Source: Heloderma charlesbogerti
Lineage: Eukaryota > Chordata > Lepidosauria > Squamata > Helodermatidae
DNA length: 64,000 bases
Assembly: GCA_026122225.1 (NCBI GenBank)
Contig: JANEZZ010002668.1
Location: forward strand, 372,001 to 436,000
Direction: 5' to 3'
This document shows, in pieces, positions 7,438 to 64,000 of this stretch. Numbering within the stretch: the first letter of the stretch is position 1; each line of letters opens with the position of its first letter. Under the pieces are notes generated by a model. It saw only the letters and a program-made list of their open reading frames with translations. It was not told where the DNA came from and did not search any database. The translations under genes were made by a program, and so were the position numbers.

Positions 7438-9017
7438 CAGAAGAACTATACAGGAAAGATCTGAATGTCCCTGATAGCCATGATAGTGCGGTCACTGAAC
7501 TTGAGCCGGACATCCTAGAAAGTGAAGTCAAGTGGGCCTTAGGAAGCATTACTAACAACAAAGCTAGTGGAGATGACAGTATTCCAGCTGAGCTATTTAA
7601 AATCCTAAAAGATGATGCTGTTAAAGTGCTGCATTCAATATGCCAACAAATTTGGAACACTCAACAATGGCCGCAAGACTGGAAAAGGTCAGTTTACATT
7701 CCAATTCCAAAGAAGGGCAATGCCAAAGAGTGTTCAAACTACCGCACAATTGCGCTCATTTCACATGCCAGCAAGGTTATGCTCAAAATCCTACAAGCTA
7801 GGCTTCAGCAGTATGCGAACCGAGAACTACCGGAAGTACAAGCTGGGTTTCGAAGAGGCAGAGGAACTAGAGATCAAATCGCCAACATTCGCTGCATCAT
7901 GGAGAAAGCAAGAGAATTCCAGAAAAACGTCTATTTCTGCTTCATTGACTACGCTAAAGCCTTTGATTGTGTGGATCACAACAAACTGTGGCAAATTCTT
8001 AAAGTGATGGGAGTACCAGACCACCTTACCTGTCTCCTGAGAAACCTGTACGAGGGTCAAGAAGCAACAGTAAGAACCAGACATGGAACAACCGATTGGT
8101 TCAAAATTGGGAAAGGAGTACGACAAGGCTGCATATTGTCACCCTGCTTATTTAACTTATATGCAGAGTACACCATGAGGAATGCCGGGTTGGATGAATC
8201 ACAGGTCGGAATTAAGATTGCTGGGAGAATTATCAACAACCTCCGATATGCAGACGATACCACCCTAATGGCAGAAAGTGAAGAGGATCTCAAGAGCCTC
8301 TTGTTGAGGGTGAAAGAGGAGAGTGCAAAAGCTGGTTTGAAACTCAACATTAAAAAAACGAAGATCATGGCATCTGGCCCCATCACTTCCTGGCATATAG
8401 AAGGGGAAGAAATGGAAGCAGTGACAGATTTTACTTTCTTGGGCTCCAAGATCACCGCAGACGGTGACTGTAGCCATGAAATTAAAAGACGCTTGCTCCT
8501 TGGGAGGAAAGCTATGGCCAACCTAGACAGCATAGTAAGAAGCAGAGACATCACCTTGCCGACAAAGGTCCGTCTAATCAAAGCTATGGTTTTCCCAGTA
8601 GTAATGTATGGCTGTGAGAGCTGGACTATAAGGAAGGCTGAGCGCCGAAGAATTGATGCTTTCGAACTGTGGTGCTGGAGAAGACTCTTACGAGTCCCCT
8701 GGACTGCAAGGAGGTCAAATCAGTCCATCCTAAAGGAAATCAACCCTGAGTGCTCATTGGAAGGACAGATCCTGAAGCTGAAGCTCCAATATTTTGGCCA
8801 CCTAATGCGAAGAGAAAACTCTCTGGAAAAGACCCTGATGCTGGGAAAGACTGAAGGCAAGAGGAGAAGGGGACGGCAGAGGATGAGATGGCTAGATAGC
8901 ATCACGGATGCAATGAATATGAACTTGAGCACACTCCGGGAGAGAGCGCAGGACAGGAAGGCCTGGCATGCTATGGTCCATGGGGTCACGAAGAGTCGGA
9001 CACGACTGCATGACTGA
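7425..9017 (+). pseudogene. BovB reverse transcriptase part, open (copy 1)
   Basis: A 530-codon open frame holding a complete RTE-type reverse transcriptase: motif A in FIDYAKAFDCVDHN (Asp about residue 175), the GVRQGCILSPCLFNLY segment, and the catalytic YADD at 8247-8258 (about residue 275). It continues to the C-terminal LWCWRRLLRVPWTARRSNQS region typical of BovB. This would copy element RNA into DNA at the nicked target. No internal stop is present, so the RT domain might still fold if translated. It is cut off from the endonuclease by two frame changes upstream. I list it as pseudogene because the element ORF is not intact. Confidence 0.9.
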
Positions 9018-14885: not shown

Positions 14886-15890
14886 TTCAACCAGGAACTG
14901 TCATTCTCAGTACTTGAGAATCTTCCTGCAACTTTTCTTGTTTTTGTCTGATAGCCACAACATCAAAGCCTTGTGTAAACTGGATAAATCCCCCATGTTT
15001 TGTGTAGTCACCATGATTCATTCCAACTGTAGCTAATAGATCTGTAACATCTGGGTCATCGCTAGTGAACGCTTTGTACTCTTGGCCAACCCAGGTCCTG
15101 GCAGGAGCTCCAACTGATCTCTCAGAGACAGACAACCCATGGGGTCCCAATTAGGGCTGTGTACCGCTTCGGCCCAAAGCCTGAACTCCAAGCCAAAGTG
15201 GGGCACTTCAAGCCGCTTCCAAGATGAGGCAGAGGGGGCATGAAGCGGCACAAAGTGGGTCAGGTTGCTCTGAAGCATTTTGGCATGCTTCAGTGCAATT
15301 CAGAAGCCCAGCCATGCTGCCGCCCAGCCCCCAGATCCTTACCTGGTCCCTCAGGATGCATGCTGGCAGCTATCTTCTTTTTCCAGGAAGTCACGTGGTG
15401 ACTCCTTGTATTTCCAGGAATAGATCCTGCACAAATGGCGCCCGTCAAGCATGCAGCATTAATGTAGCGTAATTGATGGCTTGACGGCCGCTATTTGCAC
15501 AGGATCTGTTTCTGGATATACAGGGAGAAGCGATTATACTTTTTTTTTATGGAATCACCATTTTAAAAATGTCTGGCACAAGAAGATGGCTGCCAGTGCA
15601 TGTTCGAAGGGTCTAGGAGTTGGTGGCTGCAGCAGGAGAACGCAGAGCAGAGCAGGATTCAGACACCCAAATCCGACTTTGGTTCCAGAGGCTAAAGTGG
15701 GTCAATCAGCCCAAAGTGAATCAGGCCCACCTCAGAAGCACCAAAGCGGTATCCGAGGCGGACCAGGGGTGGGAGTGTCTCTGCACAGCCCTAGTTCCAA
15801 TTGCCTTAGCAAAGCCCATGGAGAATGGCCTAAAGAGTACTAGGTAGTTCTGTCACTCATCTGCTACTTATTTTGCAGAGACTAAGCATA
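14886..15890 (-). pseudogene. Unidentified reading frame split by a hAT-like MITE
   Basis: On the minus strand 14886-15150 is open for about 85 codons and ends at a stop. Its composition looks protein-like rather than random (stretches such as GQEYKAFTSDDPDVTDLLAT and NHGDYTKHGGFIQF). The MITE at 15152-15793 interrupts it. On the far side (15794 to about 15875) the same frame continues with a possible ATG near 15865 and one in-frame TAG between. The piece would total a little over 100 codons. I do not recognise the protein. It may be a retrocopy of a small gene or an old exon. No poly(A) tail or splice sites are clear. The MITE and the TAG both argue that it is dead. Confidence 0.4.
15152..15793. 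mobile_element. hAT-like MITE with palindromic core
   Basis: Its ends are TAGGGCTGTG and CACAGCCCTA, and it is flanked by 8-bp direct repeats GTCCCAAT (15144-15151) and GTTCCAAT (15794-15801), 7 of 8 matching. The 8-bp duplication and short TIR fit a non-autonomous hAT element. The interior has an inverted repeat around 15421-15452 and 15477-15515 ('AGATCCTGCACAAATGGCG' against its complement). No transposase frame is visible, so it would need a transposase in trans. Confidence 0.8.
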
Positions 15891-18063: not shown

Positions 18064-18400
18064 ACCACTAATAGGGATGGACAGACTCACCCACGGCCAG
18101 TTTCACTGGGCACTCACCAAGCCGTAACCACTGCTCACCCACCCCTGCTTGCCATGCTGCGAAGCCCCTAAACAGCTCAGCAAGCATCCGATGAGTGACG
18201 CAGGGCTGCCCATCCTCTTAGTGAGCCACCATTTTGCACAAGTCCAAGGAAGAAAGAACAAGGGGTTTGGTGGGTGGCATGGGACTCTGCCACCTGTCAA
18301 GCCTACACAGTCCTCTTCTTACAAGGAAGGAGGCCGTGAAGGCTTGACAGGGGGCGGAGGCAGGAGTAGCTCCTCACCTGTAGTGTTGTGTAAATGGACC

Positions 18401-18405
18401 CTTTA
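18401..18405. repeat. Gypsy target-site duplication, left
   Basis: CTTTA, repeated exactly at 24736-24740. Five bp is the usual duplication size for Ty3/gypsy integrases. Confidence 0.9.
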
Positions 18406-18945
18406 TGTCAGGAGCGCCCTAGCGGCCGCTTTCAGTACACTCCAATAGCTAACTCAAGACACAGACAAAAGGATTCTTTTCAAAGCTTTAATCCTTTTAC
18501 AACTTAAACTCTCTCAGATGCTAATCACCAGCGACTAAGCAATGATCAGCAGAGTAGCCTATGCTCCGGGTAGGCAGTTGGTCCCCGTTTGAAGGAGAAT
18601 CACTTGAAGACCCTGAACTTATGGGCTAGGGAGAGATCCTCCCTCTTTCCCTTGGGTCCATGGAAGGCGGCCGTTGCTTGCGTGCCAAATGGGTGCTACG
18701 CCTCCTTTCCGCGCCCTCCATCGCTCGTCGCTCCCTGTGTCTGCATCGAGCGCCTAGGGAGCGTCGCCCCCTCCCGCATTCTCTCACTGCCCGGGTCACT
18801 ATCTATCTCAGGAATGCCGGCAGGAGTAATCTCTGCCTGGTTCTGTGCCTGTGCGGAATGAGCTGGCTCCTCTCCCACGGATTGCTGATCCTCCTCAGAA
18901 TCAGAACTGCTCTGGGGTTCTATCGGCTCAGTTTCCACCCTGACA
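18406..18945 (-). repeat. Gypsy LTR (3' LTR in element orientation)
   Basis: 540 bp bounded by TGTCAGG and CCTGACA. It pairs with 24199-24735, with roughly 40 differences by eye, many at CpG. The minus strand carries ATTAAA-like poly(A) context near 18486-18495. The purine-rich GGGAGTTGGGATGA directly next to it (18946-18959, minus strand) is a likely polypurine tract. Confidence 0.9.
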
Positions 18946-19260
18946 TCATCCCAACTCCCATGAGGCCCCGCCCTCGTGCTCCTCCCCTGGGGCCCAGGGT
19001 TTGTGGGGGTACAGCTGGTGGAAGCGCCTCAGCAGCAACGGAGCATGCACATTTTCTGCAGGTTCCCAGGTTCGCTCATCTGGCCCGTACCCCTTCCAGT
19101 CCACTACATATTGCAGGTGGCCGCGAGAAAGGCAGGAGTCCAGAATCTCCATGACCTCAAACTCCTCCTCCACCTGCACTGGTGGCGGGGGGGGGGGAAC
19201 CGACTGAGTGATGAGGGTCACCAGATACCAGGGGGGAAAGCAAGGACTGATGAAAAACAA
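18946..19260 (-). pseudogene. Gypsy integrase C-terminal chromodomain
   Basis: The segment contains a chromodomain signature, YVVDWKGYGPDERTWEPAEN, with the aromatic residues that bind methylated histone tails and so direct integration to heterochromatin in chromoviruses. The stop codon (18946-18948) touches the 3' LTR, so pol ends exactly at the LTR edge. An 11-G run at 19187-19197 disconnects this frame from the integrase core upstream. Confidence 0.85.
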
Positions 19261-19415
19261 GATGGATCTTCATGGGCGGGGAGGAGAGCCAGGCGAAAAG
19301 CAACAGGGTTAATCTGGGCCGTAATCTGGAAAGGCCCCATGCGGTGAGGTGAGAGCTTCCTTGCAGGTGAGTGAGAGGGGAGGTATTGGGTGGACAACCA
19401 ACCCCAGTCCCCCGG

Positions 19416-20282
19416 TTACACAGATGGACCCGGCTGGCGCCGCCGGTCTGCAGAGGCCTTGTAGGCTGTCTTGGCTTGCTCGAGGGAATCCCGTAAGAGG
19501 TGGTATACCGCTCGCAACTCCTCTAAAAAGTTATGGGCCGCTGGCACCGAAGAGGGAGCTAGGGTGGACGGGAAAGCCTTGGGGTGGTAACCAAAATTGG
19601 CAAAAAATGGAGTTTGGCGGGTGGAAGCATGGCAGGCATTGTTATAAGCAAATTCTGCAAGAGGCAGCAAGGAAAACCAATCATCTTGCTGGTAATTGAC
19701 ATAACAGCGCAAATATTGCTCCAGAGTCGCATTGGTGCGCTCGATCTGACCGTCCGTCTGTGGATGGTGGGTGGAGGAAAGACGGAACATCACATGGAAA
19801 AGCCTAAGTAGCTCCCTCCAGAAATGGGCAGTGAATTGGGCCCCCCTATCCGAAATGAGACCCTCGGGCCATCCGTGGAGCCGGAAAATATGCGCCAAAA
19901 ACAGCTCTGCCGTCTCCCTGGCTGTGGGCAACCCAGAGCAGGGGATGAAATGGGCCATCTTAGAAAACAAATCCACCACCACCAGAATGGTGGTCTTACC
20001 GTGTGAGCGAGGCAAGTCAGTGATGGAGTCAAGGGAGAGCAGTTTCCAAGGTCCTGAGGGGGTAGGCAGGGGGTGAAGCAAACCTGTGGGCTTGCCTGAG
20101 GGGGCCTTCGCCTGCTGGCATGTTGGGCAAGAGGAGACATAGGTCTTGATGTCCTGACACACACGAGGCCACCAAAAATCCCACGTCACTTCGTGCAGGG
20201 TCTTGGCGAAGCCAAAATGCCCAGTGGTGGGGGAGTCATGGCACTGATGGAGGACCTTCTCGCGGAGGGGTCTAGAAGGCAC
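19416..20282 (-). pseudogene. Gypsy integrase core
   Basis: 288 open codons carrying the zinc-binding HHCC module (HDSPTTGH then CPTC) and the catalytic DDE triad: Asp in LSLDSITDL, Asp in ISDRGAQF, Glu in TDGQIERTNATLEQYL. It is the best preserved domain of the element. The enzyme would join cDNA ends to host DNA with a 5-bp stagger, which fits the CTTTA repeats. It is cut off at both ends by frameshifts. Confidence 0.9.
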
Positions 20283-20457
20283 ACAGACCTGACCGGAATG
20301 GTAAAGCAGGCCACCTCACAAAGAGAAAGAGGTAGAGGGGGGGGGCGCAGAGGCTAGCCCCAATTCCTCCACTTTTGTGCGAACAAAAGCATCCTGAGCC
20401 TGTGCAGAGTGAAGGAGCTCCTCCCAAGAGCGAGGTACCGCAGCTGCCGCCAGGCTC

Positions 20458-20883
20458 TCAGGGGGAAGAATCAGAGGGGGGGGGATTTCCCTCACCCCCT
20501 GGCTGGAGGTCCGGCTTACGAGAAAGAGCATCTGATTGTAAGTTGTCGGAGGCCTTCACATGGCAAATCTTAAGGTGGAACCGGGGGGAAAAAAGCGACC
20601 ACCTAATCTGCTGCTGGTTTAAGGCACGGGCGGTCTGAAGATGTTCCAGGTTGCAATGGTCGGTTCTAACTTCAACTGGGTGCTGTGCCCCCTCCAGCAG
20701 ATGACGCCAGGTCTCCAAAGCGGACTTGATGGCCAACAGTTCCTTCTCCCACATGGTATAATTCCTCTCAGACATGGTCAGCTTCCTGGAGTAGTAGGCG
20801 CAGGATTGCAAACCACCACCCACCCGATCTGGCTGAAAAAGCACCGCCCCCACCGCAAAGTCAGAGGCATCAGTTTGCACCAC
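20458..20883 (-). pseudogene. Gypsy RNase H domain
   Basis: 141 codons of RNase H: TDASDFAVGAVLFQ (first catalytic Asp), then the WEKELLAI helix with the catalytic Glu, then TDHCNLEHL with another Asp. It degrades the RNA of the RNA-DNA hybrid. It is joined in the family directly to RT, but here lies in another frame from the segment at 20778-21188. A G-rich stretch near 20476-20487 and a 9-G run at 20337-20345 mark further breaks towards integrase. Confidence 0.85.
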
Positions 20884-21233
20884 AAAGGCTTTCTCAGGTC
20901 GGGATGTAACAGGATCGGCTCAGAACTAAAAAGCTTCTTAAGTTCCTCGAAAGCCTGTTGGGCATATGCCATCCAATGAAAAGGAGATTTCCTGTCCTTA
21001 AGGAGGTCTGTGAGAGGAGATGTCAGCTGAGCAAAGCTGGGCAGGAACTTTCTGTAGAAATTAGCAAACCCCAGAAAACGTTGCAAGTCCTTCTTGGTGG
21101 ATGGAGCCTGCCAGGAGAAGACAGCCTGGACTTTTGCAGAATCCATCCTGATACCGTCAGCTGAGATAATGTAGCCAAGATAGTCCAAAGAGGTTAGGTC
21201 AAACGCACATTTCTCCAGCTTGGCATACAGATG
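20778..21233 (-). pseudogene. Gypsy RT thumb/connection, downstream of the MITE
   Basis: Continues the reverse transcriptase after the inserted MITE: LGYIISADGIRMDSAKVQAV followed by KDLQRFLGFANFYRKFLPSF, the strongly conserved thumb segment of Ty3/gypsy RT. It joins the palm part at 22020-22160 if the 786-bp insertion is ignored. Confidence 0.85.
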
Positions 21234-22019
21234 TAGGGATGGCGGAGAATTTCTCCCCGAATCTTTGGGGGGCCGAGTGTCAACGCATTCGGCCCCCTGA
21301 AATCGGCAGTGAAATTCTCCGTCACCCCCCCCGGGATGGGACTTACCTTTGGCGAATGTCCCTCCCGGTGGCGGGTCCCGGCGGCAGTTCGTCGGCCTTT
21401 CGTCGGGAGCGGGGGCGGCAGCCGGTCTTCTGACCGGCTGCCGCCGCCGCCATTACAAAATGTAAAAAAAAAAACAAAAACCCGTGATAGGCTACGTAAC
21501 AATTAACGTAGCCTATCACGGCTAGATTTCCAAAGTCAGCCGTAATAGGCACGTAAATTGTTACGTAGACTATCACGGGTGACTTTGGAAAAAAAAAAAA
21601 GTGTGTATGCAAATGGCGGCGCTTACGTTCCTTATTTGGTCCTGGTAGTCTGCGTAAAGATTTACGTAGACTACAGTGTAGTCTACGTAAATCTTTACGT
21701 AGAATACCGGGACCAAATAAAGAACGCAAATGGCGGCGCCCATAGGCCGCCACCATTTGCGTACGCTGACTTTGGAAATCTAGCCGTGATAGGCTACGTT
21801 AATCGTTACGTAGCCTATCACGGGGGGGGGTTGTTTTTTTGTTTTTTACACTTTGTTTCGTGGCCGGGGAGACGGGGCACTTCTCCCCGGCCTGAATTTC
21901 GGCCAGGCGAGGTGGGATGGCTCCCCCCCCTTGCCTGAACTTCGGGGGGAGAAGCGAAGTGCCTCCCCCCCACCGCGAAGCACCCCTGCGAAAAGGTAAG
22001 TGACTTTCGTACATCCCTA
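21234..22019. mobile_element. Inner hAT-like MITE in the gypsy RT, palindrome-rich
   Basis: It starts TAGGGATGG and ends CATCCCTA, with 8-bp target copies TACAGATG (21226-21233) and TACAGTTG (22020-22027). The interior has palindromes of the GTGATAGGCTACGT type at 21482-21521, 21540-21578 and 21784-21822. A longer palindrome, about 21618-21732, is built from GTAGTCTACGTAAA half-sites and flanked by CAAATGGCGGC modules. The termini match those of the copy at 61910-62422 in reverse orientation. No transposase is encoded. Confidence 0.85.
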
Positions 22020-22851
22020 TACAGTTGGTGCTTGCGGAGGAGCTGGAGGACGGCAGAGACATGGTGCTGATGGGTGTGGGAGTCCTCAGAAAATATAAGT
22101 AAATCATCGAGATACACAATGAGGAAAGAGTCCAAATAGTCCCGGAAGATGGCATTCATAAAACGCGAAAACGTGGGGGGGTGCAGGTGAGCCCAAACAG
22201 CATCACTAGGTATTCATACGCTCCATGCCAGGTGCCGAAACAGGTCTTCCACTCATCCCCCTCCCGAATGCGAATCAGATTGTAGGCGCCACGCAGGTCC
22301 AACTTTGTGAAAATCTTGGCTCGCCCCAGGTGCTCCAGCATCTCAGGTATCGGGGGAGGGGGTACTTGTCAGGGTTTGAGACTGAATTGAGGGCTCTGTA
22401 GTCGTCCACCGGGAGGAGTTCGCCAGATTTCTTGGTCACAAAGATGGTAGGGGCGCAGGCGGGGGAGGAGGAAGGGCAAATGAAGCCACGTCTGAGGTTT
22501 GTGTCCAAAAACTCCCGCAGAGCTCGAAGTTCTGGCTCCGACATCAAATACAGTTGGCCAGCAGGGATCGTCGCCCCCGGAATGAGGTTAATGGCACAGT
22601 CAAATGGGCGTTGCGGGGGGGAGTTGGTCAGTCTCCTTCTTGTCGAAAACATCCCGTAAAGCCGCATACTTCTCTGGGAGGATCACGGTAGCTGAAGAAC
22701 TGCCAGAAGCAGATGAGGAGGGGGAGGAAAGGCTTAAGGCCTGGACTGGGACTGGCACCTCGATCGGGAGGCAATGCTCCCAGCAGTAGGGAGACGCAAA
22801 CTCCACTTGCTGAAGCTCCCAAGAAATCTGAGGATTATGCTTAGAGAGCAA
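22020..22851 (-). pseudogene. Gypsy RT fingers and palm
   Basis: Pieces in different frames cover the fingers (CAINLIPGATIPAG, FVTKKSGELLPVDDYRALN) and the palm ([17 protein letters not shown] with the first Asp). The catalytic YLDD box is at 22103-22114. The palm frame then runs into the MITE at 22019. Small frame changes separate 22275-22667 from 22156-22341. Confidence 0.85.
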
Positions 22852-22948
22852 GGAAATACGAATGGGTATTGGGGAACCTTGGCCAAGTGAAACTGAATCT
22901 GTTCAGTGCGGGACTGGGCGCGCAGAGTGAGCAGAGCTGTAATCCGGG

Positions 22949-23191
22949 TCACCGCGCCCGAAGAAAGAGGATGCCTATGGTCTCCACTGCCAAGGGGCCA
23001 GGAAGAGGCAGGGTAGGAATCTTGTGGAAGTGAGTGAAGGTTTCATCCATGAAACTGGTCATAGCTCCTGAGACCACTAAAGCCAGGGCCTCCACCCCAC
23101 CCCACTGGGAGGAGCTGAGGTGAACATGCAATAGCAGATGGGAGGGGGGGTTGCGGAAGGCACCCACTGGGTGTGGAACCGACCCCCACAC
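22949..23191 (-). pseudogene. Gypsy protease with mutated active site
   Basis: The retropepsin-like region has the ALxxSGAMTSFMDE context, but the codon that should be Asp in the D-S/T-G triad reads GTC (Val) at 23072-23074. One A-to-T change from GAC explains it. Without this Asp the enzyme cannot cut the polyprotein. Confidence 0.75.
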
Positions 23192-23279
23192 TGGAGACCC
23201 CCATCAGGCTTGGGTGGCAGCCTAGTCAGGCCTGGGGGCGAGGAGGAGGAGGAGGAGGAAGGAGAGGAGGGGGAGGCAG

Positions 23280-24152
23280 AGGAGCTGCGGGTCTAGTGCA
23301 GCAGGTTTTGGCGAAATGTCCCACCTTTCAACACCGAAAGCATCAGCGCTCAGCGCGCCTTCGCTCTAGTTCCTCCGGCGGCAGCGGGGCTCGGGTAGCT
23401 CCCAGCTGCACTGGGGTCTCCTCCGCCCCCACTGCAGAGGCAGGGGGTGAGGGAGGGGGCAGGAAACGGGGGGAATGGGAGGGAAATCTCAGCTCCCAGC
23501 ACCAAGCTGGGTCTGCCGGCGCCCCTCCAGCCAACTATCTATCTGGAGGCAGGTCTGGATGAGGTCCTCCAAAGTAGGCGGGCTGGGCGCCAACTCGTCC
23601 AAGATCCCGTCGTTCAACCCGTCCAAAAACTGAGCCACCAGCGCGGCATCATTCCACTGTAAATCCTGCATCAGCAAGCGAAAAGTTGTCGCATAGCTGG
23701 AAACTGAGTCCTTGCCCTGCCTGAGGCGGCGAATCTCCCGAGAAGCCATCTGCGTGCACAAGGGGTTACCGGAAAATCTGGCCATCGTTGTCATGAAACC
23801 TTGATAGTTCCCGAGCAGGAGGTCATTAGCGAGAAGAAGTCCCGAAGCCACGCCTGAAAGTAGGTTAATGATGAAGCCCACACGAACCTGTTCTGTCAGG
23901 AAATCCTCAGGTCGAAGGCGCATGTACAGCTCCAGTTGGGCCTGAAAAATCTGAAAAAGTCCTTTCTCACCAGAAAACTTCTCTGGCAAAGCCACCGGGC
24001 ACTTGCGGCGGGGGGGGGGGAATTGGAGGTGGTGGGGGTTGAACCGCAGCTTGCAGATTCTGTATGGCAGTCGTCAGTTGAGCCACTTGATCACTGAGAA
24101 TCTGGTTCTCTTGCGCCAGAGCTTGCACCGCCAGGTCCCTGGCACCCTCCAT
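23280..24152 (-). pseudogene. Gypsy Gag-like region with zinc knuckle
   Basis: Starts at ATG 24152 with a heptad-like N-terminus (MEGARDLAVQALAQENQ), probably a coiled coil, then a Pro-rich stretch. An 11-G run at 24010-24020 shifts the frame. The capsid-like part (23489-23995) has LPEKFSGEKGLFQIFQAQLE and a YATTFRLLMQDLQWNDAALV segment, akin to the Gag of sushi-ichi-type elements from which the host RTL/PEG10 genes came. At 23301-23342 a CX2CX4HX4C zinc knuckle is recognisable, but its fifth codon is a stop. Confidence 0.8.
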
Positions 24153-24183
24153 TCGGCAGTAGAAGAGAGAGGAAAAAAAAGAG

Positions 24184-24195
24184 GAACAGGGACCA
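24184..24195 (-). promoter_or_regulatory. Putative primer-binding site
   Basis: The minus strand reads TGGTCCCTGTTC three bases inside the 5' LTR. Position and the TGG start fit a tRNA 3'-end complement. I cannot name the tRNA. Confidence 0.45.
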
Positions 24196-24198
24196 AGC

Positions 24199-24735
24199 TG
24201 TCAGGAGTGCCCTAGCGGCCTCTTTCAGTACACTCCAATAGCAAACTCAAGATACAGACAAAAGATTCTTTTCAAAGCTTTAATCCTTTTACAACTTAAT
24301 GACTCTTTCAGATGCTAATCACCAGCGACTAAGCAATGAACAGCGGAGTAGCCTATGCTCTGGGTAAGCAGTTGGTCCCCGTTTGAAGGAGAATCACTTG
24401 AAGACCCTGAACTTATGGGCTAGGGAGAGATCCTCCCTCTTTCCCTTGGGTCCACAGGAGGCAGCTGTTGCTTGCACGCCAAATGGGCGCTATGCCTCCT
24501 TTCCGCGCCCTCCATCACTTGTCACTCCCTGTGTCTGTGTCAAGCGTCTAGCAAGCCCCCCTCCCGCATTCTCTCACTGTCTGGGTCACTATCTATCTCA
24601 GAAATGCCGGCAGGAGGAATCTCTGCCCGCTGCTGTGCCTGTGAGGAATGAGCTGGCTCCTCTCCCACGGATTGCTGATCCTCCTCAGAATCAGAACTGC
24701 TCTGGGGTTCTATCGGCTCAGTTTCCACCCTGACA
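24199..24735 (-). repeat. Gypsy LTR (5' LTR in element orientation)
   Basis: 537 bp, TGTCAGG to CCTGACA, partner of 18406-18945. The minus-strand start of both LTRs opens a short acidic reading frame (METEPIEPQSSSDSEEDQQ), 80 codons in one and about 62 in the other. Function unknown and possibly chance. Confidence 0.9.
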
Positions 24736-24740
24736 CTTTA
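24736..24740. repeat. Gypsy target-site duplication, right
   Basis: CTTTA, matching 18401-18405. Confidence 0.9.
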
Positions 24741-25183
24741 CAGCTGTCATTTATGCAACATTAGATTCCCGGAAATCCCCAAGCCACCATTTTTACACAA
24801 AATGCCAGCTTGCTTAGGGACTGGGCAAGTGTTGGACCTGCTCGCCAGGTGCAAGGCTGCTCAGTGAGCAGGTCCAGGTGAGCATGGAGTCTTGGTGAGC
24901 AGGTCTGGGTTGTGTGAGTGGGGAGGAGTCCACCGGATTCCACCCCCTTCCCAGACTCTCAATACATCCCTACCACTAGAAATGTTTGAACCTGTTGCAT
25001 GCACTGGATCCCTCTCTTGGCCAAACACAAAATTTGGCATTCTTTTAGAAGCTATCACAAGCCACCATAAAATGAGATTTCACCAAAAGTAGAATATATT
25101 GCATTACATAATTTGTTATTTATAGCCTTGTATTATCTGATTTAATCAGGGAGGTCCACTCTGTGAGCCCAGCAACCACTGTG

Positions 25184-31124: not shown

Positions 31125-31816
31125 TAGGGATGTACAAAATCCCTACCTGGCTCCGTGCCGGTCAATCTGCAGTGGGGTAGAGGCGCTCCGTCCCTCCCCT
31201 CGGAATCCTTCCTGGCTGGCTCCACTCCATGGCAGCTCCGCAGAGCCACTGGCCGGGGCTGGCCACAGCCGGAGTTCCGGGCGCTGCTGGGCTGCTGCAG
31301 CTCCAAATGGTGGCCGTCGTAGCGGCCGCCATTTGTGTCCTTGCTGTAAGCCATGATAGGCTACGTAAGTATTTACATAGCCTATCACGGCAAAAGTCAG
31401 CCATGCAAATGGCGGCCACTACACCATTTGCGTGGCTGCCTTTTGCCGTGATAGGCTACGTAAATACTTATGTAGCCTATCACAGCTTACTGCAAGGACA
31501 CAAATGGCATAGCAGCCGCCATTTGCGCCCCTGCTCTTTGCCGTGATAGGCTACATAAGTATTTATGTAGCCTATCACAGCCTACTGCGAGGGCACAAAT
31601 GGCAGCTGCTATGATGGCCGCCATTTGTGGCCGCAGCAGCCCGGCAGCGGCCGGGAGACCAGCTGGAGCCGCCGGATCCGCAGGATCCGCCGCCAGGTAC
31701 ATTCCGTCCCTGCGGTGTGGCGGGGTGGGGGAGGCCGTTCCGCCACGGATTCTGGGGAGCCGGATTCTAGAGTCCAGCCTCACTGGAGTCCGTGGCGGAA
31801 TTATCTGACATCCTTA
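31125..31816. mobile_element. hAT-like MITE with exact 8-bp TSD and palindromes
   Basis: The element starts TAGGGATGT and ends CATCCTTA, with identical 8-bp repeats TTAGCCAC at 31117-31124 and 31817-31824. The interior carries three palindromes of the GTGATAGGCTACGTAA type (31351-31390, 31446-31484, 31541-31580). Between them are GCCGCCATTTG / CAAATGGCGGC modules. GC-rich flanks resemble CpG islands. No coding capacity. Confidence 0.9.
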
Positions 31817-41390: not shown

Positions 41391-42538
41391 GAAATACAAG
41401 TTCCAATTATTTCCCTAATATTTACTTATAGATTTTTTTAAGAGATAAGAAGAATCCCATACTCCACAGCAACTAGTTACAGCCAGTGAGCACAGATTCA
41501 TATTTTCTTCTGCCCCCTCATTAAGAAGGAAAAGAAAACTACAAATCCAATGCTCTCCAACAGGAAATAAGGCTCCAGAGCATGATTGGAAATGTCTTTT
41601 CCAGCTAAGGAAATGCCAGAAAGGCCTCCCCTGTATGTAATCAGCCTTCCCCATATCACTGATTACTCCTCCTCCTCAACACAAAGACTTCTTTTGCTCT
41701 AGAAGAGGCAGCGGAGTAGGGTGACCACTGAGTAACTGACAAAAAAGAGGAAATGCTTCACCCAAAAAGAGGACAAAGGAGGAAACAGATTTGGATAAAA
41801 GTTTCATATGCTAACTGATATGTATATATGCCAATTTAGAAATATTTACTATAATTTAAATAGGAATTCAATACATCTCAGCATGGTGGGGAAGAAACTA
41901 AACATTCAATGAAGCACGCACAGTAGGGCTATGTGTGCTAGCTTTCTCTACTGTCTTCTAAGAATGTGTGCCCCCAATTTGGACTGGGAGCATGGCAGTC
42001 CAGGAGTGGAGGATAAATGGAGACTTTTTTTCCTTTTTTTACCCTCCCCCAACCCCTTGCAGGGAGTGGGATTTCATGAAAAATATGGGTGAAGGAGAAA
42101 GCTTAAATCCTCCTTTCCTGGAACAACATGATCCTGCCTACTGCCTTGTTGTGGTGAAGGGGCTTGTGTAACTCAGTGAAGCCATAAGCTATGCCGTGCA
42201 GGGCCACCCAAGACGGACAGGTCATGGCGGAGAGTTCTGACAAAATGTGGTCCACTGGAGAAGGAAATGGCAACCCAGTCCAGTATTCTTGCCAAGAAAG
42301 CCCCATGGAACGTATCACAAGGATAAAAGATATGACGCCGGAAGATGAGCCCCTCAGGTCGGAAGGTGTCCAATATACTACTGGGGAAGAGCAGAGGGTA
42401 TTTCCAAGTAGCGCCAGAAAGAGTGAAGCGGCTGGGCCAAAGCTGAAAGGACACTCAGCTGTGGATGTGTCTGGTGGTGAAAAGAAAATCTGATGCTGTA
42501 AAGAACAATATTGTTTAGGAACCTGGAATGTAAGACCA

Positions 42539-43117
42539 ATGAATCAAGGTAAGTTGGAGGTGGTCAAACATGAGATGGCAAGATTGAACATCGACATCTT
42601 GGGAATCAGCGAACTCAAATGGACAAGCATGGGCAAATTTAATTCAGGTGACCATCATATCTACTACTGTGGGCAAGAATCCCTTAGAAGAAATGGAGTA
42701 GCACTCATAGTCAACAAAAGAGTGGGAAAAGCAGTACTGGGGTATAATCTCAAAAATGATAGAATGATCTCAGTACAAATCCAAGGCAAACCATTCAACA
42801 TCACAGTAATTCAAGTCTATGCCCCAACCACTAAGGCCGAAGAAGCTGAGGTTGATCGGTTCTATGAAGACCTACAACACCTTCTAGAACTAACACCAAA
42901 AAAAGATGTCCTCTTCATCATAGGGGATTGGAATGCTAAAGTAGGAAGTCAAGAAATCACCAGGATAACAGGCAAGCATGGCCTTGGTGTACAAAATGAA
43001 GCAGGACAAAGGCTAATAGAGTTTTGCCAAGAGAACATGCTGATCATAGCAAACACTCTTTTCCAACAGCACAAGAGGCGAATCTACACATGGACATCAC
43101 CAGATGGTCAATATTGA
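42539..43117 (+). pseudogene. BovB endonuclease fragment (copy 2)
   Basis: 192 codons of the endonuclease with NIDILGISELKW, VYAPTTKAEEAEVDRF and IIGDWNAKVG. It begins after an upstream stop at about 42493 and ends at a TGA where copy 1 has CGA (about 43096-43117 region). Both stops look like CpG deamination. Confidence 0.85.
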
Positions 43118-43703
43118 AATCAGATTGATTATGTCCTTTGCAGCCAAAGATGGAGAAGCTCTATACAGTCAGTCAAAACAAGACCTGGAGCTGACTGGTG
43201 GCTCAGATCATGAGCTTCTTGTTGCAAAGTTTCAGCTTAAACTGAAGAACGTAGGGAAAACCACTAAACCATTCAGGTATGACCTAAATCATATCCCTTA
43301 TGAATATACAGTGGAGGTGAGGAATAGATTTAAGGGATTAGATCTGATCGACAGCGGGCCTGAGGAACTCTGGACGGAAGTCCGTAACATTGTTCAGGAG
43401 GCAGCAACTCAATCCATCTCAAAGAAAAAGAAATGCAAGAAAGCCAAGTGGCTGTCTGATGAGGCTTTACAAGTAGCTGAGGAAAGAAGGGAAGCGAAAA
43501 GCAAGGGAGAAAGGGGAAGATATATCCAACTGAATGCAGAGTTCCAGAGAATAGCAAGGAGAGACAAGAAGGCCTTCTTAAATGAACAATGCAAAGAAAT
43601 CGAGGAAAATAACAGAATGGGAAAGACTAGAGATCTCTTCAAGAAAATCGGAGTTCTCAAGGGAACGTTTTGTGCAAAGACGGGCATGATAAAGGACAAA
43701 TAA
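43104..43703 (+). pseudogene. BovB endonuclease end and linker (copy 2)
   Basis: 199 codons in the frame that holds the conserved SDHELL endonuclease motif and the Lys-rich linker. It stops at TAA near 43701, where copy 1 has GAA. That the SDH motif is in a different frame from the preceding endonuclease is shared with copy 1. Confidence 0.85.
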
Positions 43704-43943
43704 GGCAGGGACCTAACAGAAGCAGATGAGATTAAGAAGAGGTGGAAAGAATACACAGAAGAACTATACAGGAAAGATCTGAATGTCCCTGATAGCCATG
43801 ATAGTGCGGTCACTGAACTTGAGCAGGACATCCTCGAGAGTGAAGTCAAGTGGGCCTTAGGAAGCATTACTAACAACAAAGCTAGCGGAGATGACAGTAT
43901 TCCAGCTGAGCTATTTAAAATCCTAAAAGATGATGCTGTTAAA

Positions 43944-44393
43944 GTGCTGCACTCAATATGCCAACAAATTTGGAACACTCAACAGTGGCCACAAGACTGG
44001 AAAAGGTCAGTTTACATTCCAATTCCAAAGAAGGGCAATGCCAAAGAGTGTTCAAACTACCGTACAATTGCGCTCATTTCACATGCCAGCAAGGTTATGC
44101 TCAAAATCCTACAAGCTAGGCTTCAGCAGTATGCGAACCGAGAACTACCGGATGTACAAGCTGGGTTTCAAAGAGGCATAGGAACTAGAGATCAAATCGC
44201 CAACTTTCGCTGGATCATGGAGAAAGCAAGAGAATTCCAGAAAAATGTCTATTTCTTCTTCATTGACTATGCTAAAGCCTTGGATTGTGTGGATCACAAC
44301 AAACTGTGGCAAATTCTGAAAGAGATGGGGAGTACCAGACCACCTTACCTGTCTCCTGAGAAACCTGTCACGAGGGTCAAGAAGCAACAGTAA
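43944..44393 (+). pseudogene. BovB RT fragment, fingers and motif A (copy 2)
   Basis: 149 codons from the start of the RT domain to just after motif A (FIDYAKALDCVDHN). The frame is lost at an added G near 44326-44330 before the GVRQGC segment. Confidence 0.85.
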
Positions 44394-44620
44394 GAACCAG
44401 ACATGTAACAACCGATTGGTTCAAAATTGGGAAAGGAGTACGACAAGGCTGCATATTGTCGCCCTGCTTATTTCACTTATATGCAGAGTACATCATGAGA
44501 AACGCCGGGCTGGATGAATCACAGGTCAGAATTAAGATTGCCGGGAGAATTATCAACAACCTCAGATACGCAGATGATACCACCCTAATGGCAGAAAGCA
44601 AATAGGATCTAAAGAGCCTC

Positions 44621-45535
44621 TTGTTGAGGGTGAAAGAATACACAGAAGAACTATACAGGAAAGATCTGAATGTCCCTGACAGCCATGATAGTGCGGTCAC
44701 TGAACTTGAGCAGGACATCCTAGAGAGTGAAGTCAAGTGGGCCTTAGGAAGCACTACTAACAACAAAGCTAGCGGAGATGACAGTATTCCAGCTGAGCTA
44801 TTTAAAATCCTAAAAGATGATGCCGTTAAAGTGCAAACCAGTGCAAAAGCTGGTTTGAAACTCAACATTAAAAAAACGAAGATCATGGCATCTGGCCCCA
44901 TCACTTCCTGGCATATAGAAGGGGAAGAAATGGAAGCAGTGACAGATTTTACTTTCTTGGGCTCCAAGATCACCGCAGACGGTGACTGTAGCCATGAAAT
45001 TAAAAGACGCTTGCTCCTTGGGAGGAAAGCTATGGCCAACCTAGACAGCATAGTAAGAAGCAGAGACATCACCTTGCCGACAAAGGTCCGTCTAATCAAA
45101 GCTATGGTTTTCCCAGTAGTAATGTATGGCTGTGAGAGCTGGACTATAAGGAAGGCTGAGCGCCGAAGAATTGATGCTTTCGAACTGTGGTGCTGGAGAA
45201 GACTCTTACGAGTCCCCTGGACTGCAAGGAGGTCAAATCAGTCCATCCTAAAGGAAATCAACCCTGAGTGCTCATTGGAAGGACAGATACTGAAGCTGAA
45301 GCTCAAATATTTTGGCCACCTAATGCAAAGAGAAAACTCTCTGGAAAAGACCCTGATGCTGGGAAAGACTGATGACAAAAGGAGAAGGGGATGGCAGAGG
45401 ATGAGATGGCTAGATAGCATCACTGATGCAATGAATATGGACTTGAGCATGCTCCAGGAGAGAGCAGAGGACAGGAAGGCCTGGCGTGCTATGGTCCATG
45501 GGGTCACGAAGAGTCGGACACGACTGAACGACTGA
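44621..45535 (+). pseudogene. BovB RT C-terminal part with inserted duplicate (copy 2)
   Basis: 304 codons. The first about 70 repeat the segment found upstream at about 43748-43943 (YTEELYRKDLNVPDSHDSAV onward). They then join the RT thumb and C-terminal domain (SAKAGLKLNIKKTKIMASGP onward). YADD lies upstream in a broken frame near 44566-44577. The join has short homology (GTGAAAGA against GTGGAAAGA at one side, AGTGCAAA at the other). Confidence 0.85.
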
Positions 45536-61909: not shown

Positions 61910-62422
61910 TAGGGATGGACGAAAGTCCCTTACCTGGTCCCGCAGCTTTTTTCGGTGGGGAGGGAGGCGCTCCATTTCTCCCCCCAAAATTCTTGGCGGG
62001 TGGGGAGGCGCTCCGTCCCTCCCCGCCAAAATTCTGGCCGGAGGGGAGCGCTCCGCCTCTCCGGCTGCGAAAGAAAAAACTAAAGTAAAAAAAAAAACAA
62101 CGTGATAGGCTACGTAAAGATTTACGTAGCCTATCACGGCTGACTTTGAAAATCTAGCCGTGATAGGCTATGGAAATCTTTACGTAGCCTATCACATTTT
62201 TTTTTTACTTTGTAATGGCGGTGGTAGCAGCCGGTCGGAAGACCGGCCCCCGCCGCCGCCGAACTGCTGCCGGGAGCCTCCGCCGAGAGGGACATTCGCA
62301 CGAGGTAAGTCCCATACCAGGGGGGGCGGGGTGTCGGAGAATTTCCCCACCAATTTTGGGGGGCCGAATGCATTGGCATTCGGCCTCCCGGAGATTCGTG
62401 GAGAAATTCTCCGACATCCCTA
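61910..62422. mobile_element. hAT-like MITE in BovB copy 3, palindrome-rich
   Basis: 513 bp from TAGGGATGG to CATCCCTA, with 8-bp target copies CTACAAAC (61902-61909) and CTACAAGC (62423-62430). BovB copy 1 has the uninterrupted CCTACAAGCTAGGC at this point, which proves the insertion. It contains two GTGATAGGCTACGTAA-type palindromes (62101-62139, 62158-62196). Its ends match those of 21234-22019 in reverse order. Confidence 0.9.
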
Positions 62423-63954: not shown

Positions 63955-64000
63955 TAGGGATGTCAGAGAATTCCGCGACGGATCTCGGTGAGGCCGAATG
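63955..64000. mobile_element. hAT-like MITE, left end, cut by window edge
   Basis: Starts TAGGGATGTCAGAGAATTC and continues to GAGGCCGAATG. It matches the terminus of the MITE at 61910-62422 read from its right end (TAGGGATGTCGGAGAATTTC ... GAGGCCGAATG). Confidence 0.75.

What the first reader, a model, noticed from the sequence alone, without database searches (positions are those of the whole stretch)
18064..24980. Three-level nest: hAT-like MITE holding a gypsy element holding another hAT-like MITE
Seen directly: TAGGGATG/CATCCCTA ends with ACCACTA(A/G) flanks enclose a gypsy element that has its own CTTTA target copies. That element encloses a second TAGGGATG/CATCCCTA element with TACAG(A/T)TG flanks. 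Both hAT-like elements have the same termini, so the same transposition activity acted both before and after the gypsy insertion. This gives a local relative clock: outer MITE, then gypsy, then inner MITE.
Basis: partly seen in the sequence, partly recalled or inferred. Interest (0 to 1): 0.75.

Follow-up and report, generated by a model that had tools for sequence, protein, structure and literature searches.

The report
Nested jumping genes in a lizard genome
A small DNA transposon was interrupted by a retrotransposon, which was later interrupted by another small DNA transposon of a different family; such nests are ordinary in animal genomes, although this one suggests that a common way of dating such elements can overstate their age.

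Summary
The three-level nest is real. The outer element (18072-24972) is a 566-bp Ac-type hAT MITE split by a decayed chromodomain Ty3/gypsy retrotransposon (18406-24735). A second MITE (21234-22019) interrupts that element's reverse transcriptase. At least 8 of 20 fetched relatives of the outer MITE run uninterrupted across the gypsy site. A Podarcis relative of the gypsy protein runs uninterrupted across the inner site. The order outer MITE, gypsy, inner MITE stands.

Two corrections. The outer target copies match only if the right one shares the terminal A of the repeat, so one base was probably lost. And the two MITEs are different families: beyond the 8-bp terminus, which is the generic Ac/Ds sequence, their ends show no significant similarity. 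"The same transposition activity" is not shown.

MITE age from family divergence fails here: the inner copy is 3.5- to 11-fold further from its family consensus than the gypsy's age allows. A sister MITE inside a young BovB-like LINE shows the same. Nesting as a relative clock is well known. Low interest.

The parts
18064..18071 (+). left target-site copy of outer MITE, ACCACTAA
18072..18405 (+). left arm of outer MITE (TAGGGATG end, CTCAC subterminal repeats); last 5 bases CTTTA are the gypsy target site
18401..18405 (+). left CTTTA target-site copy of the gypsy element
18406..18945 (-). LTR (540 bp), left; the 3' LTR in the element's own orientation
18949..19269 (-). chromodomain piece (PF00385, E 3.1e-13)
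19419..20315 (-). integrase piece (PF17921, PF00665); best-scoring named relatives from lizards
20461..20919 (-). RNase H piece (PF17917)
20781..21233 (-). reverse-transcriptase piece downstream of the inner MITE; aligns to Podarcis P0078 residues 61-175 and to Ty3 RT (4ol8) from 243
21226..21233 (+). left target-site copy of inner MITE, TACAGATG
21234..22019 (+). inner MITE, TAGGGATG...CATCCCTA, palindrome-rich core, 786 bp
22020..22027 (+). right target-site copy of inner MITE, TACAGTTG
22022..22213 (-). reverse-transcriptase piece upstream of the inner MITE (PF00078); aligns to P0078 residues 9-61 and to 4ol8 up to 241
23492..24073 (-). gag piece (PF16297 DUF4939, PF03732)
24199..24735 (-). 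LTR (537 bp), right; the 5' LTR in the element's own orientation
24736..24740 (+). right CTTTA target-site copy of the gypsy element
24741..24972 (+). right arm of outer MITE (CATCCCTA end)
24972..24979 (+). right target-site copy of outer MITE, ACCACTAG, sharing its first base with the terminal repeat

Best explanation
Three independent insertions, each into the one before, in what is most likely a squamate genome. (1) A non-autonomous Ac-type hAT element (outer family, 566 bp here) inserted with an 8-bp duplication (ACCACTAR); one base was later lost at its right junction. (2) A chromodomain Ty3/gypsy retrotransposon integrated, in minus orientation, into CTTTA inside that element. (3) A non-autonomous hAT element of a second family (786 bp, palindromic core) inserted into the retrotransposon's reverse transcriptase with an 8-bp duplication. 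Shown here: the junctions, the uninterrupted relatives at levels 2 and 3, and the lack of similarity between the two MITE families beyond the terminus. Inferred: cut-and-paste movement by hAT transposases supplied from elsewhere, the single-base loss, the host group, and the absolute age.
For: Ends and target copies. Gypsy site empty: in at least 8 of 20 fetched loci of the outer family (L026, L032, L033, L035, L037-L040) one BLAST piece crosses it, and 82-95 bases of the 110-base site are identical there; CTTTA itself is exact in 4 of these 8 and changed at one or two bases in the other 4. 11 of the 20 loci show a terminal pair with 8-bp copies in register 0 within two mismatches (L024 and L025 are one duplicated insertion). 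Inner site: two reverse-transcriptase pieces abut in Ty3 RT (to 241, from 243) and overlap by one residue in Podarcis P0078 (9-61 and 61-175; 47% and 52% identity), as an 8-bp duplication predicts. Inner family: 7 of 10 loci scanned gave a full-length copy with 8-bp target copies, besides three in the window. Empty site for a sister copy in two BovB-like LINE copies. Gypsy domains: 6 of 8 pieces matched Pfam.
Against: The outer target copies are one base out of register, and the pairs of both MITEs differ at one of eight bases. No orthologous locus from another species was available, and no transposase was found or tested: the hAT domain searches did not complete. The outer right arm was never searched on its own. 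Divergence from family consensus does not reproduce the nesting order at masked sites, which I attribute to diverse MITE sources but have not proved.
Confidence: 0.95

Rival explanations
1. The two outer ends belong to two separate elements that happen to flank the gypsy insertion.
For: The target copies need a one-base shift, and the window holds no second outer copy at E 1e-3.
Against: Genome copies carry both arms in one stretch, uninterrupted across the gypsy site. Consensus 5' and 3' ends of the family resemble each other (0 of 500 shuffles as high). Both arms carry inward CTCAC repeats.
Confidence: 0.02
2. One hAT transposase moved both MITE families, before and after the gypsy insertion; the families are like different Ds classes of one Ac.
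For: Identical 8-bp ends and 8-bp duplications. [quoted passage not shown]
Against: The outer and inner subterminal regions, which in Ac most likely give specificity (same paper), show no significant similarity, and CTCAC repeats occur in the outer ends but not in the inner copy's. The 8-bp end is generic for Ac-type elements.
Confidence: 0.25
3. The gypsy element is much older than its LTRs suggest because gene conversion made the LTRs alike, so that the inner MITE's divergence from its family is a true age.
For: Inner copy K 0.122-0.208 from consensus against about 0.035 per lineage for the LTRs. LTR gene conversion is known (recalled).
Against: The same excess is seen for the sister MITE 61910-62422, which lies in a LINE without LTRs whose copies differ at only 5-8 of 258 sites.
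Confidence: 0.15

Closest known systems
Maize Ac/Ds family (hAT superfamily); PMC3260210, passages seen
   Same: C/TAGGGATG start, CATCCCTA end, 8-bp target duplication, non-autonomous classes of very different make-up
   Different: only 8 of the 11 terminal bases are shared (inner and outer continue differently); no link to a transposase shown; animal host
Chromodomain Ty3/gypsy (Metaviridae; the name is recalled) of vertebrates
   Same: gag with DUF4939/Retrotrans_gag, RT, RNase H, integrase, chromodomain in that order; 5-bp target duplication; TG...CA LTRs
   Different: decayed copy interrupted by a MITE; no protease piece identified; the best-scoring integrase relative is a 62% identical Anolis protein, so the family name was not determined
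Nested-insertion (interruption) analysis of mammalian transposons; PMC2517846, passages seen
   Same: older elements are interrupted by younger ones and the nesting is used for relative age
   Different: single locus here, probably in a squamate; the order is read from one nest, not from counts over a genome

Membership tests
hAT superfamily (outer MITE) | 8-bp target-site duplication | tested here: met
   (one mismatch, one-base register slip); register 0 within two mismatches in 11 of 20 fetched loci, none found in 9
hAT superfamily (outer MITE) | short terminal inverted repeat of the C/TAGGG type | tested here: met
hAT superfamily (inner MITE) | 8-bp target-site duplication and TAGGG-type ends | tested here: met
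   7 of 10 loci scanned
hAT superfamily (both) | mobilised by a hAT transposase (hAT dimerisation domain) | not tested
   PF05699 search of the genome sent, never answered
MITE | short, no coding capacity, many copies | tested here: met
   566 and 786 bp; the one frame of 150 aa or more lying wholly inside the inner element (151 aa) has no Pfam match at E 0.1; frames of the outer arms were not scanned. Outer left arm: 88 matching pieces, several per element, a lower bound. Inner family: 10 full-length copies among those examined
inner and outer in one MITE family | shared subterminal sequence | tested here: not met
   single copies without the 8-bp end: 39 to 83 of 300 random window pieces score as high; consensus ends: 74 to 278 of 500 shuffles as high; with the 8-bp end included, single copies: 11 to 129 of 200 shuffles
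Ty3/gypsy | gag; RT, RNase H and integrase in this order; LTRs with a 5-bp duplication | tested here: met
Ty3/gypsy chromovirus-type | chromodomain after the integrase | tested here: met
   PF00385 at 18949-19269

The most novel reading that the evidence does not exclude
The inner hAT MITE family was propagated by a persistent, diverse swarm of sources rather than one master. Copies inserted after a gypsy element or a young LINE therefore derive from lineages that split much earlier, and consensus-based dating overstates their insertion age several-fold. Nests like this one would allow that bias to be measured genome-wide.
Probability: 0.45. Interest if true: 0.4.

Novelty: new member of a known kind. 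Interest (0 to 1): 0.2.

Why it matters
The locus itself is ordinary. Its use is as a calibration point. The inner MITE cannot be older than the gypsy insertion, whose LTRs differ by 0.069 at all sites. Yet it is 0.12-0.21 from its family consensus at its two ends. A second such bound exists at 61910-62422. Repeat landscapes that read age from consensus divergence would misplace both copies.

Tried and rejected
Rejected: a chance pairing of the outer ends; inner and outer as one family; MITE age from family consensus as a check of the order.

Led nowhere: viral contigs for the integrase (11 pattern matches, none a relative) and for an outer 20-mer (none); Rfam at gathering scores (none); paper search for TAGGGATG (the 20 of 821 listed are telomere motifs and papers whose titles do not concern transposons). 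Paper searches on hAT, MITE, gypsy and squamate terms listed 20 of 584, 20 of 34 and 12 of 14 papers; no listed title names these families. That is no claim that they are undescribed.

Row choices: the outer set left out L025 (100% identical to L024 over 2064 bp) and L031 (369 bp, internal deletion) and added L010b. The inner set keeps the distant L046 and W31125. Outer copies were picked by similarity to the left arm, while inner copies were met by chance in those loci, so the two sets are not equally sampled. The smaller inner set gave 0.146 and 0.166 (masked 0.094 and 0.111) for the inner copy and 0.135 and 0.270 for the 61910 copy. The LTR mask uses both sequences and the MITE mask the consensus, so the ratios are rough. 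In one search the inner ends showed repeated short words of their own at similar odds (11 and 8 of 1000 shuffles, against 9 and 4 for the outer ends), so repeated words alone do not mark a family. In one search the site alignments shown for L038 and L040 fell on the palindromic counterpart; one search repeats all 8 within the proper piece.
Full report
What was checked. The finding claims an outer hAT-like MITE holding a gypsy element holding an inner hAT-like MITE. All stated ends are in the sequence. Outer ends are TAGGGATG at 18072 and CATCCCTA ending at 24972. The gypsy LTRs are 18406-18945 and 24199-24735 with CTTTA on both sides. The inner element is 21234-22019 with TACAGATG and TACAGTTG on its sides. 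Of 6 convergent exact terminal pairs within 9 kb, 3 have matching 8-bp flanks within one mismatch, allowing a one-base shift, against about 0.01 expected. The outer pair is the one that needs the shift: the right copy ACCACTAG begins at 24972, the last base of the terminal repeat. Of 20 regions fetched from the same genome, 11 show a terminal pair with target copies in register 0 within two mismatches (5 exact; two of the 11 are one duplicated insertion) and 9 show none. The loss of one A is the simplest reading.

The outer element is one element. A search of the window's own genome (2.30 Gb; the window is C2437:372001-436000) with the left arm gave 88 matching pieces, several per element and a lower bound. 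Twenty regions were fetched. In at least 8 of 20 (L026, L032, L033, L035, L037, L038, L039, L040) one BLAST piece runs straight across the point where the gypsy element sits here. Of the 110 bases around the point, 82 to 95 are identical in these 8. The 5-base target reads CTTTA in 4 of them and differs at one or two bases in the other 4; the largest gap total is 12 letters, in L040. The family's two consensus ends also resemble each other (score 142; 0 of 500 shuffles as high) and carry inward CTCAC repeats (3 and 4 in 200 bp; 12 of 1276 sampled 200-bp windows reach 3, and 7 of those 12 lie over these arms).

The gypsy element. It lies on the minus strand with gag, reverse transcriptase, RNase H, integrase and a chromodomain, in that order; 6 of the 8 pieces scanned matched Pfam, and no protease was identified. 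The best-scoring integrase relatives are named as Anolis carolinensis, with Podarcis, Salvator and Varanus, but also two frogs, among the 120 listed of 5711. The search with the RT piece downstream of the inner MITE listed mostly fish among its named hits, with one squamate, the gecko Eublepharis (P0134; 75 proteins). With LINEs that I recognise from memory as BovB (Pfam shows only endonuclease and RT), this points to a squamate without proving it; a 2026 paper calls squamates the only reptilian group harbouring Bov-B (PMC13295347, passages).

The inner element interrupts the reverse transcriptase. The piece on its right (22022-22213) aligns to Ty3 RT (4ol8) up to residue 241 and the piece on its left (20781-21233) from residue 243. 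In a Podarcis lilfordi protein (P0078) the pieces align to residues 9-61 and 61-175. The relative is thus uninterrupted, and the one-residue overlap fits an 8-bp duplication. Coding sequence was not joined. The inner family has ten full-length copies with 8-bp flanking copies among those examined: three in the window (21234-22019, 31125-31816, 61910-62422) and one in each of 7 of the 10 loci scanned. A fourth window copy starts at 63955 and runs off the end (46 bases). For 61910-62422 the empty site CTACAAGC is intact in two other LINE copies of the window.

Same activity or not. The common 8 bp are the start of the Ac/Ds terminal repeat C/TAGGGATGAAA (PMC3260210, passages). Beyond these 8 bp, outer and inner ends do not score above random window pieces (39 to 83 of 300 as high for the four comparisons), and the consensus ends do not score above shuffles (74 to 278 of 500). 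With the 8 bp included, single copies gave 11 to 129 of 200 shuffles as high. I therefore treat them as different MITE families of one superfamily. That the same transposase served both remains possible: the same paper reports Ds1 elements that share little with Ac yet respond to it. The searches for hAT transposases did not complete.

Ages. The LTRs differ by K2P 0.069 at all 535 sites, 0.039 without CpG sites (480) and 0.026 without CG/TG/CA sites (348). With 0.0013 substitutions per site per million years, the rate used in PMC13295347 (passages), this is roughly 27, 15 or 10 million years; the spread shows how rough it is. The outer copy differs from its family consensus by 0.268 and 0.235 at its two ends (masked 0.099 and 0.105), and the inner copy by 0.122 and 0.208 (masked 0.111 and 0.143). 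Unmasked values agree with the nesting order; masked values do not separate the two. More important, the inner copy cannot be older than the gypsy insertion, which is about 0.035 (masked 0.013) per lineage, yet it is 3.5- to 11-fold further from its consensus. MITE 61910-62422 repeats this: 0.197 and 0.304 from consensus, but it sits in a LINE differing from two other copies at 8 and 5 of 258 sites. Diverse source lineages are the likeliest cause; these consensus sequences rest on ten copies each, the tested copy left out of its own. LTR gene conversion could explain the first case but not the second.

Verdict. The inference of one shared transposition activity is unproven, and the proposed age check is unreliable. 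Interruption of old by young elements and its use for relative age are established (PMC2517846, passages). Interest is low.

Noticed in passing
window 61910-62422: Inner-family MITE inserted in a BovB-like LINE, target copies CTACAAAC/CTACAAGC, empty site intact in LINE copies near 7796 and 44114.
   Followed up: yes
window 31125-31816: Distant member of the inner MITE family (K about 0.7-0.8 from consensus at its ends) with exact target copies TTAGCCAC and a long internal palindrome.
   Followed up: partly
window 15152-15793: Another hAT-like element with TAGGGCTG/CAGCCCTA ends and target copies GTCCCAAT/GTTCCAAT. Its left end scores weakly with the outer right arm (4 of 300 random pieces as high) and a few inner-family ends; no clear relation.
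   Followed up: partly
window 43857-44834: The BovB-like LINE at about 42494-45535 repeats part of its own coding segment: a stretch matched within 43857-44114 is matched again at 44744-44834.
   Followed up: no
L010 213-1060 and 1300-2168: An inner-family and an outer-family copy lie about 240 bp apart, both with 8-bp target copies.
   Followed up: no
L024 and L025: Two regions about 61 kb apart on one contig are identical over 2064 bp in opposite orientation, outer-family copy included: an inverted segmental duplication or an assembly duplicate.
   Followed up: partly
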